Source: a virus
Strand: one strand, 5' to 3'
DNA: 64,000 nucleotides
IMG/VR virus record: IMGVR_UViG_3300042375_000763
Coordinates: 1-64,000 of that record
Part shown: piece by piece, positions 25,579 to 45,141 of the stretch
Layout of the letters: every line of letters starts with the position of its first letter
Position numbering within the stretch: position 1 is the stretch's first letter
Notes under the pieces: generated by a model
What the model was told of the DNA's origin: nothing
The model's database searches: none
What the model saw: only the letters and a program-made list of their open reading frames with translations
Program-made: the position numbers and the translations under genes

Positions 25579-26380
25579 CTTTTGATACTGAAGCAGTTCG
25601 TTCTTGGTCAGTAAAAGCAGTTGCCACATAAAGAGCTGCCACGCCGTCGTGGCCACTATATTCACCAGTCGCATAAGCTGATTTCATACGAGACGTCATA
25701 GCAGATGCAGAACGCATTGTGTTACCCATTGAAGCGGTATCATATTGCATAGTATTATTGGAATTGAAACCAAGTGCAGAACCTGCAGCAAATGCATTGA
25801 TATTTGCACCGAGGAACATAAAGCCCCAGTTTTTACCTTCTGCTTTTTCCACCATTTGTTTGACTGTAGTATTATTGAAAGTTCTGGAAGCATTTTCTGC
25901 ACCATCAGTCAAGATAGTGATAATGATAGAGTCACGATCTGCTTTCTTGTTTGCAGAAAGTTGACTATTGATCTGCATCATGACACCACCAATGGCATCA
26001 TAAAGGTTTGTGGTACCTTGTGGATCATATGTTTTTTCATTAAGATCTTGAACTTCATCTACAGTAACACGACTGAAAACACTGTTGACAGACGAACCGT
26101 CAAATTTATAAAGGGAAACAAAGGTTGGAATCCCCGTCTCCACTGCGTCTTTCTTTTGTGCTTGTAGGTACTCGTTATAGCCAGAGATCGTTGCAGCACG
26201 ACAGGACTGCATTGAGCCAGAATCGTCTAGAACAAAGATAATATGAGAGGTTTTTGTACCCGCGCGTTTCGGCTTGAACGCATCAGCAAGTGATACAGTT
26301 GGTTTTGAAACAGTAAGTGTTGTATGCGGGAGAATATTTACTTGTTGGTTTGGGAGTTTTGGAAAATTTACATATGTCAT
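25571..26380 (-). CDS. von Willebrand factor A-domain protein
   Basis: About 269 aa from the ATG at 26380, with AAAGG upstream. HIIFVLDDSGSMQSC (~40-54) is the metal-binding MIDAS DxSxS motif, with a Thr (DPQGTTNLYDAI) and Asp (ILTDGAEN) completing it. vWA domains mediate protein contacts or metal-dependent assembly. It is the first gene after the tmRNA. Confidence 0.82.
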   Translation of the reverse strand: MTYVNFPKLPNQQVNILPHTTLTVSKPTVSLADAFKPKRAGTKTSHIIFVLDDSGSMQSCRAATISGYNEYLQAQKKDAVETGIPTFVSLYKFDGSSVNSVFSRVTVDEVQDLNEKTYDPQGTTNLYDAIGGVMMQINSQLSANKKADRDSIIITILTDGAENASRTFNNTTVKQMVEKAEGKNWGFMFLGANINAFAAGSALGFNSNNTMQYDTASMGNTMRSASAMTSRMKSAYATGEYSGHDGVAALYVATAFTDQERTASVSKDE

Positions 26381-26453
26381 AATAGACCTTTCTATGTTGT
26401 GTGATGTGTGATGCAACTTTTCTGTTTCTAGGTAAGTTGCCAACCCACAGTAC

Positions 26454-26498
26454 TTATGCTGCTAGAGCAAAAGCCTTAGGTGCGAAATTTTCATTTGC
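26454..26498 (-). other. tmRNA proteolysis-tag reading frame
   Basis: Fourteen codons from GCA to GCA then TAA: ANENFAPKAFALAA. Ends -ALAA as in known ssrA tags. Confidence 0.92.
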
Positions 26499-26581
26499 AT
26501 TTCTTATTTTATTGCGTTAACCGAGCTTTCGCCGGGTAGCTCCATCCTGCCTAGTGCGCCTGTCGATCCTATTTATCGCCC

Positions 26582-26678
26582 AGCAAAGATACCGATCGTC
26601 TTGTTTACATAAACTTATCTCGCCATATGATAGCAATGCTTCATACATCCAAGGGTTCCATAAACTGACCGGTATCTG
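26582..26678 (-). other. Structured intervening segment of the permuted tmRNA
   Basis: Closed by AGATACCG/CGGTATCT. Homologous in sequence and predicted helices to the intervening segment of the permuted tRNA-Phe (41037-41134), including ATGGCGAGA and the GTTTA/TAAAC pairing. Confidence 0.8.
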
Positions 26679-26743
26679 TGGTGGACGATTCGGGTACCGC
26701 CCCCGAGTCCAGAACGTGTTCAGTGAATATCATCACTACATAG

Positions 26744-26968
26744 TTATTTATTACATCTTTTTAAATATGCTTCTTCAAAATCATATTCATGTACACAATT
26801 TTCGTGATTACCCCAGATACGATCAAAGTAACCATTATATACACTCATGATTTCTTTTTCGCGCCAAGAGTCCGGGATAAGATGACCTTTCACAATCCAG
26901 AAGTATCTATTGGCTTCTTTTAATTCAACCTCTGTCATATCTTCTTTGTTTTTCTTCTTCTGAATCAT
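26744..26968 (-). CDS. Small protein upstream of the tmRNA
   Basis: 74 aa, charged N-terminus then EANRYFWIVKGHLIPDSWREKEIMSVYNGYFDRIWGNHEN. No known motif. Its stop abuts the tmRNA 5' end, so it may be co-transcribed with the tmRNA. Confidence 0.6.
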   Translation of the reverse strand: MIQKKKNKEDMTEVELKEANRYFWIVKGHLIPDSWREKEIMSVYNGYFDRIWGNHENCVHEYDFEEAYLKRCNK

Positions 26969-31738: not shown

Positions 31739-31815
31739 TGGTGCCCCTGGCAGGATTCGAACCCACAACCTGCCGCTTCGAAGGCGGAAGCTCTATCCAG
31801 TTGAGCTACAGAGGC
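31739..31815 (-). tRNA. tRNA-Arg (TCG)
   Basis: Full cloverleaf with encoded CCA, acceptor GCCTCTG/CAGGGGC, loop CTTCGAA. Confidence 0.93.
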
Positions 31816-36590: not shown

Positions 36591-36666
36591 TGGTGACCCC
36601 AGTGGGACTCGAACCCACGACATTTGCTTTTAGAGAGCATGCTCTAACCATCTGAGCTACGGGATC
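36591..36666 (-). tRNA. tRNA with anticodon CTA (amber-reading)
   Basis: 76 nt with CCA; acceptor GATCCCG/TGGGGTC, T-arm GTGGG/CCCAC. Best anticodon arm is TGCT-CTCTAAA-AGCA, giving CUA with canonical U33 and A37A38 but only 4 stem pairs. Confidence 0.75.
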
Positions 36667-36672
36667 ATTAAC

Positions 36673-36778
36673 AGTTTGTGTGTCTACTTTTTTGGACAGA
36701 AAATCGAAAACTGTTGTGATCTTGTTGCCGAAGCTTACGACCTATGCTATGATTTTAATTGATTGCTGTACACAAACT
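36673..36778 (-). ncRNA. Closed-stem structured RNA S2
   Basis: Ends pair AGTTTGTGT/ACACAAACT (9 bp) between tRNA-Thr and the CTA tRNA. Interior unassigned. Confidence 0.45.
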
Positions 36779-38228: not shown

Positions 38229-38238
38229 ATTAGTCAGG

Positions 38239-38300
38239 ATGGTTTTTGAGCGTTTACAAATTAAATGTTTGTTGCTTTCTTTTTTGCTGAACCCATCCTT
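38239..38300 (-). repeat. GGATCA-family element F2 (empty)
   Basis: Arms GGATGG/CCATCC, with the family's TTCAGCAA and CAAAAA segments near the ends and no tRNA halves inside. Confidence 0.5.
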
Positions 38301-39881: not shown

Positions 39882-39994
39882 CAGAAAATGTTTGTCTGTC
39901 ACTCTCCAGACTGCCACCCATAAAATAATATTGCATCACAGTTTCAGGGTCACGATGCAAGGGTATCGTCTCTCTTTAAGAGACTCTAATATCA

Positions 39995-40105
39995 GGATCA
40001 TTTATTTGCCGGTTGCCTTTACCATTTGGCCACAAAGATCTTGTGTGATCTAAGGTAGGACTTGAACCTACAATCTACTGGTTGTTAAAATTGCTGTATT
40101 GATCC
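39995..40105 (-). tRNA. GGATCA-family element C: probable permuted tRNA
   Basis: Arms GGATCA/TGATCC. First part has the T-arm GTAGG TTCAAGT CCTAC and acceptor 3' strand; second part restarts with GATCTTTG and a D-arm (GCC...GGC) then ACCGG, which pairs with CCAGT in the first part. Acceptor has two U-U mismatches and no CCA, so it may be decayed. Anticodon not assignable. Confidence 0.5.
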
Positions 40106-40112
40106 TTAAACT

Positions 40113-40976: not shown

Positions 40977-40989
40977 CCATTATTTTTCT

Positions 40990-41207
40990 GGATCAACTTT
41001 TTGCGTAACCTGCTCTACTACCTGAGCTACTCTCCCATCAAAGATACTGCACGCTAGTTTATACCCAATTGTCTCGCCATATAAGCCTATTAATATCTTA
41101 TACAAGAAAGGTTGTCATAAACTAACAGTATCCGTGGTGGGAGAGGAAGGATTTGAACCTCCGACACGGCCCATTTCAAGGATGCTAATTTGTTGCTGTA
41201 ATGATCC
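40990..41207 (-). tRNA. Circularly permuted tRNA-Phe (GAA)
   Basis: The 3' half (nt 29-76, CCA at 41135-41137) precedes a 98-nt intervening RNA and then the 5' half (nt 1-28, G1 at 41036). Joined, they give a perfect 76-nt tRNA-Phe: acceptor GGGAGAG/CTCTCCC, D-stem GCTC/GAGC, anticodon stem GGTCC/GGGCC with loop TTGAAAT, variable GTGTC, T-arm GGAGG TTCAAAT CCTTC. The junction falls between nt 28 and 29. Outer flanks pair GGATCA/TGATCC. Confidence 0.9.
41037..41134 (-). other. Structured intervening RNA of permuted tRNA-Phe
   Basis: Closed by GATACTG/CAGTATC; TAGTTTAT/ATAAACTA and GTATAAG/CTTATAT helices. Homologous to the tmRNA intervening segment with compensatory changes. Confidence 0.82.
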
Positions 41208-41316
41208 ATTTTGTATTTGTCAAGCCAGAGCGTCACCAGTGTCGTGGATAGAATGTCTATAGTCACCTATATAAACTCAATCCATGATACCTGGCTATCA
41301 TCTGGCTGTCAGGAAT

Positions 41317-44997: not shown

Positions 44998-45009
44998 ATT
45001 ATTTAATCA

Positions 45010-45134
45010 GGATCAACTTTTTGCTACGCGTTTTACTACTAAACTAACCCCTGTCAGTGTATGGTCAGGGGTGTAGGAATTGCACCTACGACTCGATCTC
45101 CGAATGATATGCATATTTGTTGCTGAAATGATCC
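45010..45134 (-). tRNA. Circularly permuted tRNA, anticodon TCG (Arg-like)
   Basis: 3' half first (CCA at 45062-45064), only 8 nt between, then the 5' half from 45053. Joined: acceptor CAGGGGT/ACCCCTG, D-stem GTTT/AAAC, anticodon arm CGATC-ATTCGGA-GATCG, T-arm GTAGG TGCAATT CCTAC. Junction again between nt 28 and 29. Flanks GGATCA...GCAACAAAT and GCAAAAAGTTGATCC match those of permuted tRNA-Phe. Confidence 0.82.
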
Positions 45135-45141
45135 TTTAATT

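What the first reader, a model, noticed from the sequence alone, without database searches (positions are those of the whole stretch)
40990..41207. Circularly permuted tRNA-Phe gene in a phage
The 3' half ending in CCA is encoded before the 5' half. Rejoining between nt 28 and 29 gives a textbook 76-nt tRNA-Phe(GAA): all four stems pair, U33 is present and the variable loop GTGTC is phenylalanine-like. Permuted tRNA genes are known from red and green algae and some archaea; I know of none in bacteria or phages. No other tRNA-Phe was found in the window.
Basis: partly seen in the sequence, partly recalled or inferred. Interest (0 to 1): 0.97.

Follow-up and report, generated by a model that had tools for sequence, protein, structure and literature searches.

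The report
Phage Y-RNA shaped like permuted tRNA
The swapped-order "tRNA" is real, but it is best read not as a tRNA gene awaiting splicing but as one of a large family of phage small RNAs, some of which mimic tRNA, that carry a handle for a phage-encoded relative of the RNA-binding protein Ro60.

Summary
On the minus strand at 41208-40988 a 3' tRNA half ending in CCA precedes a 5' half; joined, they make a full tRNA-Phe(GAA) cloverleaf, and diverged relatives keep the pairing.

The reading as a spliced tRNA gene is not favoured. The halves sit in a recurring cassette: 7-bp end stem, NNN, CAGCAA, cargo, other stem strand, G. Of 122 pattern hits in viral contigs 104 have a perfect 6-bp stem; in cellular contigs 4 of 122. 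Cargo includes permuted tRNA shapes (mostly with a 3-9 nt acceptor cap and no CCA), interrupted unpermuted tRNAs, and RNAs without tRNA shape. Several relatives match Rfam's Y RNA-like family YrlA below its cut-off; the window's do not.

The cassettes go with a DUF2828/DUF7788 protein of predicted Ro60 fold, present in 20 of 24 records, the window's included. Of 80 loci picked by that protein, 69 hold a cassette (49 of the 59 not already seen). An ordinary tRNA-Phe lies 27 kb away.

Best explanation: a Y-RNA-like tRNA mimic of a phage Ro60-type particle. Splicing is not excluded: joined anticodon arms are canonical far above chance.

The parts
41202..41208 (-). End stem P1, 5' strand TGGATCA
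   Evidence: Pairs with 40989-40995; 104 of 122 viral pattern hits have 6 of 6 P1 pairs, 26 stem types
41193..41198 (-). CAGCAA motif, 3 nt inside P1
   Evidence: It was part of the search patterns, so its conservation is partly by selection. With CAGCA only, convincing cassettes lie near the Ro-like gene in 7 of 10 cultured phages looked at; one Enterococcus phage 113 copy reads CAGCGA
41135..41182 (-). 3' tRNA half (nt 29-76 if the break is 28/29), anticodon GAA, ends in encoded CCA 41137-41135
   Evidence: CCA also in five diverged relatives, three of them found without asking for CCA
41037..41134 (-). Linker: stem GATACTG/CAGTATC then leader-like TTTGAT before G1
   Evidence: Stem covaries in L003, L004, L026, L366; ATCTTTGA(T/C)G in all, though L366 was found by that motif
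41009..41036 (-). 5' tRNA half (nt 1-28): acceptor 5' strand, D arm, A26, GG
40988..40995 (-). End stem P1, 3' strand TGATCCA, followed by conserved G
45008..45135 (-). Second cassette: permuted tRNA shape, anticodon-position TCG, encodes ACCA, 12-nt linker
39993..40106 (-). Third cassette: permuted tRNA shape with imperfect acceptor and anticodon stems, no CCA
38235..38299 (-). Fourth cassette, 65 nt, no tRNA shape seen
   Evidence: stem AGGATGG/CCATCCT, paired by eye
36672..36778 (-). Fifth cassette, 107 nt, no tRNA shape seen
   Evidence: stem AGTTTGTGT/ACACAAACT

Best explanation
The element is a phage-encoded Y-RNA-like small RNA. Its two ends pair into a short stem with a CAGCAA internal motif, which is probably the handle for a phage Ro60-like protein (DUF2828/DUF7788) encoded at 72816-74276 of the same record. 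The body between the stem strands folds as a tRNA opened at the anticodon arm, so in the gene the 3' half comes first; it mimics tRNA-Phe and need not be rejoined. Shown by sequence: cassette, pairing, tRNA shape, recurrent neighbourhood of stem and Ro-like gene in other phages, Ro60 fold prediction. Inferred: that the protein binds the stem, that the RNA stays unspliced, and what the tRNA-shaped body does. My guess is that it recruits or baits tRNA-handling factors, such as exoribonuclease or anticodon nucleases.
For: End stem and CAGCAA recur with covarying stems, while the same pattern in cellular contigs has the stem in 4 of 122 hits. DUF7788/DUF2828 protein in 20 of 24 records including the window's own; 0 of 14 cellular controls. 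Reciprocal test: of 80 loci picked by protein, 69 hold a sense cassette (141 sense, 1 antisense, 3 in reversed sequence), and 51 of the 54 with 2 kb upstream have one within 2 kb upstream. 21 of the 80 share sequence with loci fetched earlier; of the other 59, 49 hold one. Only 41 of the 141 have a T arm, so the handle is not specific to tRNA. Five TROVE-type Ro loci hold none and, by eye, carry a different motif. Predicted fold: the ten best PDB matches are all Ro60/TROVE, Z 11.8-18.3 over 381-405 residues, then a drop to vWA-only at 9.7 (Foldseek E 2.3e-9). Rfam YrlA spans whole cassettes in several relatives, e.g. L100 49.9 bits E 2e-8, Enterococcus phage 113 47.8 and 34.4 bits, LeBron 39.8 bits. 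Most permuted shapes have 3-9 nt acceptor caps (49 of 67 rows), and 10 of 65 encode CCA. Ordinary tRNA-Phe(GAA) and tRNA-Arg(TCG) duplicate the window's two best permuted shapes.
Against: Rfam YrlA does not match the window's own cassettes up to E 10 and never reached its cut-off of 69 bits in my scans. None of nine protein-picked contigs gave a YrlA match at E 0.01, though only one of their cassettes has a T loop. The window's element encodes CCA and has a leader-like linker, as a processed tRNA would. Joined anticodon arms are canonical far above chance (43 of 61 permuted; 14 of 17 interrupted), which splicing would explain simply. The own Ro-like gene is 28-36 kb from the cassettes, and no cassette was found within about 2 kb of it. 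Four of 24 records lack the protein: two of over 140 kb, one 10-kb fragment, and CcrColossus, which was added through a tRNA-like match and has the TROVE type. The 80 loci are those closest to one protein, 17 groups at 85% identity, not a random sample.
Confidence: 0.72

Rival explanations
1. A true permuted tRNA gene: the flanks (stem, CAGCAA, A-rich strands) form an intron-like handle that is cut out, the 28/29 ends are ligated, and the acceptor linker is removed to give tRNA-Phe. The Ro-like protein would be a splicing aid.
For: Joined anticodon arms are canonical: 43 of 61 permuted with 5 of 5 pairs, 32 also with U33. Interrupted, unpermuted tRNA genes carry the same element in the anticodon arm; 14 of 17 give 5 of 5 pairs and 13 also U33, shuffled means 6.1 and 5.9, maxima 11 and 10. 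Cronobacter phage S13 has two, which score as tRNA over the Rfam cut-off. CCA is encoded in the window's element.
Against: Most permuted shapes tested are capped at the acceptor without CCA; many anticodon loops are arbitrary and one class has a recurrent stem mismatch; 100 of 141 cassettes near Ro-like genes have no T arm. Ligases are not general: RtcB 2, Rnl1-type 2, Rnl2-type 9 of 20 records (one of the 20, G013, is not a true carrier), none in the window's 80-kb record. An ordinary tRNA-Phe is present.
Confidence: 0.14
2. A two-piece tRNA: processing frees CCA and G1 at the linker, and the two halves stay paired through acceptor, anticodon and P1 stems, much as two-piece tmRNA does (recalled), with or without charging.
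For: CCA and a TTTGA(T/C) leader occur in all five diverged relatives of the window's element while the rest of the linker changes; CCA was not asked for in finding L026, L366 and the second L004 copy, nor the leader in finding L003, L004 and L026. The same record encodes a permuted tmRNA.
Against: Does not apply to most of the family, which has 3-9 nt caps or no tRNA shape. No processing data.
Confidence: 0.1
3. A decayed tandem tRNA duplication that looks permuted by accident.
For: The array is dense in tRNA genes.
Against: Covarying stem and conserved halves in many diverged phages.
Confidence: 0.01

Closest known systems
YrlA, bacterial Y RNA-like RNA (Rfam RF02553)
   Same: End stem; tRNA-like domain in the order T arm, acceptor hairpin, D arm (consensus); found with a Ro-family protein; several relatives match over the whole model. 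Described in PMC8394870 (passages read) as a stem that tethers Rsr plus a tRNA-like domain that binds PNPase.
   Different: Stem motif is CAGCAA rather than the ACUUC-type motif seen by eye beside TROVE genes; an anticodon hairpin is often kept; all scores seen are below the cut-off and the window's cassettes are not matched; partner is DUF2828, not TROVE.
Permuted tRNA genes of red and green algae and archaea (recalled; the red alga case appears in passages, others in references seen)
   Same: 3' half before 5' half with a linker.
   Different: Here a covarying end stem and CAGCAA motif flank the halves, most tRNA-shaped relatives lack CCA, and a Ro-like gene accompanies them.
Putative Y RNAs of Listeria phage CKA15 (PMC12282133, passages read)
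   Same: Three strongly transcribed unannotated regions within 2 kb upstream of an Rsr-like gene; Listeria phage LP-048 has three tandem cassettes just upstream of its DUF2828 gene (one by script, two by eye).
   Different: The passages read name no permuted tRNA shape; that the two sets correspond is my inference. No tRNA shape was seen in the LP-048 cassettes.
Phage Ro60/TROVE proteins (CcrColossus gp139; Ro60 of Thermus phage phiLo, PDB 9l5y)
   Same: Predicted fold of the DUF2828 protein is nearest to a TROVE structure and to the phiLo Ro60; phrog_850 covers both kinds.
   Different: Pfam TROVE did not match the four DUF2828 proteins scanned; the five TROVE loci looked at have no CAGCAA cassette.

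Membership tests
YrlA (RF02553) | 5' and 3' ends pair in a basal stem | tested here: met
   (104 of 122), window stem
YrlA (RF02553) | tRNA-like domain in order T arm, acceptor hairpin, D arm | tested here: met
   Met for the window's element and the permuted set, consensus; not for cassettes without tRNA shape
YrlA (RF02553) | Covariance score at or above the curated cut-off (69 bits) | tested here: not met
   Best relative 49.9 bits; window cassettes not matched up to E 10. So I do not file it as YrlA; it works like one
YrlA (RF02553) | Ro-family protein in the same genome | tested here: met
   DUF2828/DUF7788 protein at G000:72816-74276; Ro60 fold predicted for its relative in L148
YrlA (RF02553) | Binds Ro/Rsr by its stem and PNPase by its tRNA-like domain | not testable with these tools
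   Needs protein-RNA binding assays
Permuted tRNA gene | 3' half encoded before 5' half, joined halves form a cloverleaf | tested here: met
Permuted tRNA gene | Mature rejoined tRNA is made | not testable with these tools
   No RNA reads available
Permuted tRNA gene | Bulge-helix-bulge splice motif and splicing endonuclease (recalled) | not tested
   PF01974 was not searched
Permuted tRNA gene | An RNA ligase available in the phage | tested here: inconclusive
   None of three families in the 80-kb fragment; 9 of 20 records have one or more; host ligases unknown
Ro60 protein family (for the partner) | Ro60 fold (helical ring plus vWA domain) | tested here: met
   on a predicted model of the relative in L148 (pLDDT 79.3), not on the window's own protein
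Ro60 protein family (for the partner) | Pfam TROVE (PF05731) | tested here: not met
   1 of 21 records, CcrColossus only; DUF2828 and DUF7788 instead

The most novel reading that the evidence does not exclude
Phages splice tRNAs: the stem-CAGCAA element is an intron-like handle held by a Ro60-like protein, cut out of both permuted and interrupted tRNA genes, and the anticodon arm is religated. To my knowledge (recalled) this would be the first protein-guided tRNA splicing in phages or bacteria, and it would give the Ro-Y RNA-RNA ligase association a function.
Probability: 0.14. Interest if true: 0.97.

Novelty: new variant of a known kind. Interest (0 to 1): 0.72.

Why it matters
It ties a very common phage protein family (a relative found in 676 of 50,697 phage records), annotated at most as Ro-like or RNA-binding in the records seen, to a defined RNA partner. 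It shows that the same RNA handle occurs on permuted, interrupted and non-tRNA bodies. It makes the open question of what Ro-Y RNA particles do, and why tRNA mimicry is involved, testable in well-studied laboratory phages such as those of E. coli K-12 and M. smegmatis.

Tried and rejected
Rejected: chance (shuffles, reversed-sequence and cellular controls). Rejected on size and sequence, by recall only: group I, group II and small self-cleaving ribozymes; cmscan of twelve related loci listed only tRNA, tRNA-Sec and GOLLD among the 150 rows shown of 158 at the cut-off. T4 stable RNAs C and D do not show the cassette by eye. A general ligase partner was not found. BLAST with the window's own element found only a 30-nt tRNA-like match in isolate phages, and one relative's 216-nt cassette found nothing. 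A conventional in-cis form with a GG..CC stem was not found at first; looser searches later found it. Printed literature: ten searches showed no permuted tRNA gene in phages or bacteria in the listings, and none in the passages I opened; the key YrlA papers are not held, so I cannot say what they already report.

Dropped rows: one search shows 91 of 197 deduplicated cassettes above a score threshold and includes two nested repeats; one search keeps 65 with distinct T arm plus acceptor, 61 testable; the linker-length list of 67 is before that removal. One search lists 20 interrupted hits; I set aside L212 and L351 as likely false and did not enter L067 (second) and L104, while the second S13 gene was added by eye, giving 17. 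The D-loop/T-loop count (GG with TTC 53, AG with TGC 7, GG with TGC 1) uses a crude label: the window's own D loop AGGTAGTA counts there as GG.

Full report
What is there. On the minus strand the element runs 41208-40988: stem strand TGGATCA, TTA, CAGCAA, ten more bases, the 3' tRNA half with CCA, a 98-nt linker, the 5' half, 13 more bases, stem strand TGATCCA, then G. Joined, the halves give acceptor GGGAGAG/CTCTCCC, D arm, anticodon arm GGTCC-TTGAAAT-GGGCC, variable loop GTGTC and T arm. The RNA folds better than 200 shuffles (z -3.49), though the minimum-energy fold does not show the anticodon arm in joined form. The record is an 80,190-base phage fragment with a dense minus-strand tRNA array. 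An ordinary tRNA-Phe(GAA) lies at 67850-67925.

Relatives show that it is real. A scan for an acceptor-CCA-linker-acceptor pattern gave L003 and L004; L026 came from a T-loop and CAGCA pattern and L366 from the leader motif. They keep the layout while acceptor, T, end and linker stems change in pairs. CCA and the leader ATCTTTGA(T/C)G are present in all five relatives, but each was asked for in finding some of them: CCA was free in L026, L366 and the second L004 copy, the leader in L003, L004 and L026.

A general cassette. Tested on a pattern that did not ask for the end stem, 104 of 122 distinct hits have 6 of 6 stem pairs against 19.7 expected from shuffled partners, with 26 stem types; the base before GG is A in 103 of the 104. 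The same pattern in genomes of cells gave 6 of 6 in only 4 of 122, all four looking like cassettes. After removing near-duplicates there were 197 cassettes.

The cargo. 91 of the 197 pass a score for a permuted cloverleaf; breaks lie mostly in the anticodon arm, often between nt 27 and 30, others at its base or in the variable loop. In 61 testable permuted shapes the broken anticodon stem pairs 5 of 5 in 43, 32 of them with U33; shuffling the 5' halves gave means 10.2 and 8.4, maxima 18 and 15. The acceptor linker is 9 nt or less in 49 of 67 rows, and NCCA follows the acceptor in 10 of 65. Near Ro-like genes only 41 of 141 cassettes have a T arm. The window has five cassettes; three are tRNA-shaped. 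The one at 45135-45008 has anticodon-position TCG, and an ordinary tRNA-Arg(TCG) is at 31739-31815.

The partner protein. Caulobacter phage CcrColossus has permuted tRNA-like RNAs next to a TROVE (Ro60-type) gene, which pointed to Y RNAs. Rfam's YrlA model then matched cassettes of several relatives over its full length, below its cut-off; of nine contigs picked by the protein none matched, but only one of their cassettes has a T loop. TROVE itself was in 1 of 21 records. Clustering ORFs beside 129 cassette loci gave as the largest cluster a ~475-aa protein in 36 loci, Pfam DUF2828 plus DUF7788, phrog_850 'RNA-binding protein'. It is in 20 of 24 records, including the window's own at G000:72816-74276, and in 0 of 14 control genomes. 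Its profile matches phage TROVE proteins over the vWA region (hhalign probability 92). A predicted model of the L148 relative (pLDDT 79.3) has Ro60/TROVE structures as its best PDB matches.

The reverse test. 69 of 80 hold a sense-strand cassette; 141 were sense, 1 antisense, and 3 appeared in reversed-sequence controls. 51 of the 54 loci with 2 kb upstream have one within 2 kb upstream of the protein match, 30 of the 51 at 74-90 nt. 21 of the 80 share sequence with loci fetched earlier, mostly through cassettes; of the remaining 59, 49 hold one. Of ten cultured DUF2828 phages looked at within about 2.5 kb of the gene, I judge cassettes convincing in seven (JH2, CP8, LeBron, LP-048, Enterococcus 113, S13, phiN3) and none in Aeh1, BF or nt-1. 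Some mycobacteriophage records annotate the protein as Ro-like.

Interrupted tRNAs. Phage S13 and others carry the same element in cis, inside the anticodon arm of tRNA genes in normal order, usually closed by a 4-nt loop such as GTTA (20 hits, 0 in reversed sequence, 2 judged false). Of 17 scored, 14 restore 5 of 5 anticodon pairs and 13 also U33; shuffled halves average 6.1 and 5.9. S13 also has an ordinary Gly-TCC; its only ordinary Thr in the 50 kb scanned is TGT, whereas the interrupted one would read GGT.

Reading. One architecture explains the tRNA-shaped forms: a tRNA-shaped body with a Ro-handle at its anticodon arm, the chain ends lying either at the handle (permuted) or at the acceptor (interrupted). 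That the ends move freely, that acceptors are mostly capped, that anticodon loops vary and that most handles near Ro-like genes carry no tRNA shape favour a scaffold or mimic in a Ro-type particle. The restored anticodon geometry and the encoded CCA in some, the window's element included, are what splicing would predict, so I keep that at 0.14. A decoy for anticodon nucleases would also need this geometry; one paper suggests such a role for YrlA (PMC7790460, passages read).

Novelty. YrlA Y RNAs, their tRNA mimicry and Ro genes in phages are known (PMC8394870, PMC12282133, PMC7765460, PMC7824862; passages read). What I did not find stated in the ten searches is the CAGCAA stem class, its pairing with DUF2828 proteins, and the permuted/interrupted duality; the original YrlA papers were not available to check.

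Noticed in passing
window 26363-26774 (-): ARAGORN calls a permuted (two-piece type) tmRNA with tag ANENFAPKAFALAA.
   Followed up: no
window 36591-36666 (-): tRNA with CTA anticodon (called Pyl): possibly an amber suppressor; L003 668-743 has one too.
   Followed up: no
L376 4395-4638 (Cronobacter phage S13) and the other loci: Unpermuted tRNA genes interrupted in the anticodon arm by the same stem-CAGCA element, intron-like.
   Followed up: partly
L005 7482-7598 and relatives: A class with acceptor linker TTGGTC that can pair with GACCA just upstream of the end stem; in L019 and L023 both sides change together (TGGTAT/ATACCA). Anticodon triplet is hypervariable.
   Followed up: no
L008 9457-9627 and 9638-9877; L025 2663-2898: Long cassettes (170-239 nt) without tRNA shape; the last two look related to each other.
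   Followed up: no
L003 2958-3395 (-), L027 5070-5488 (-): GOLLD RNAs near the same tRNA arrays.
   Followed up: no
L075 3122-3409 (-), L093 5220-5729, L060 4559-5158: Recurrent neighbours of cassettes: an Rpb6-like small protein, a DSP-type phosphatase and a calcineurin-like phosphoesterase.
   Followed up: no
L373 5328-6479 (Listeria phage LP-048), L375 819-2078 (Serratia phage BF): RtcB-like or other RNA ligase genes within about 2 kb of the DUF2828 gene.
   Followed up: no
L186, L229, L252: Cassettes in contigs filed as cellular genomes, possibly phage DNA.
   Followed up: no
L374 2050-2190 (Enterococcus phage 113): A cassette with CAGCGA in place of CAGCAA that gives the 47.8-bit YrlA match: the motif is not absolute and my searches miss such variants.
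   Followed up: no
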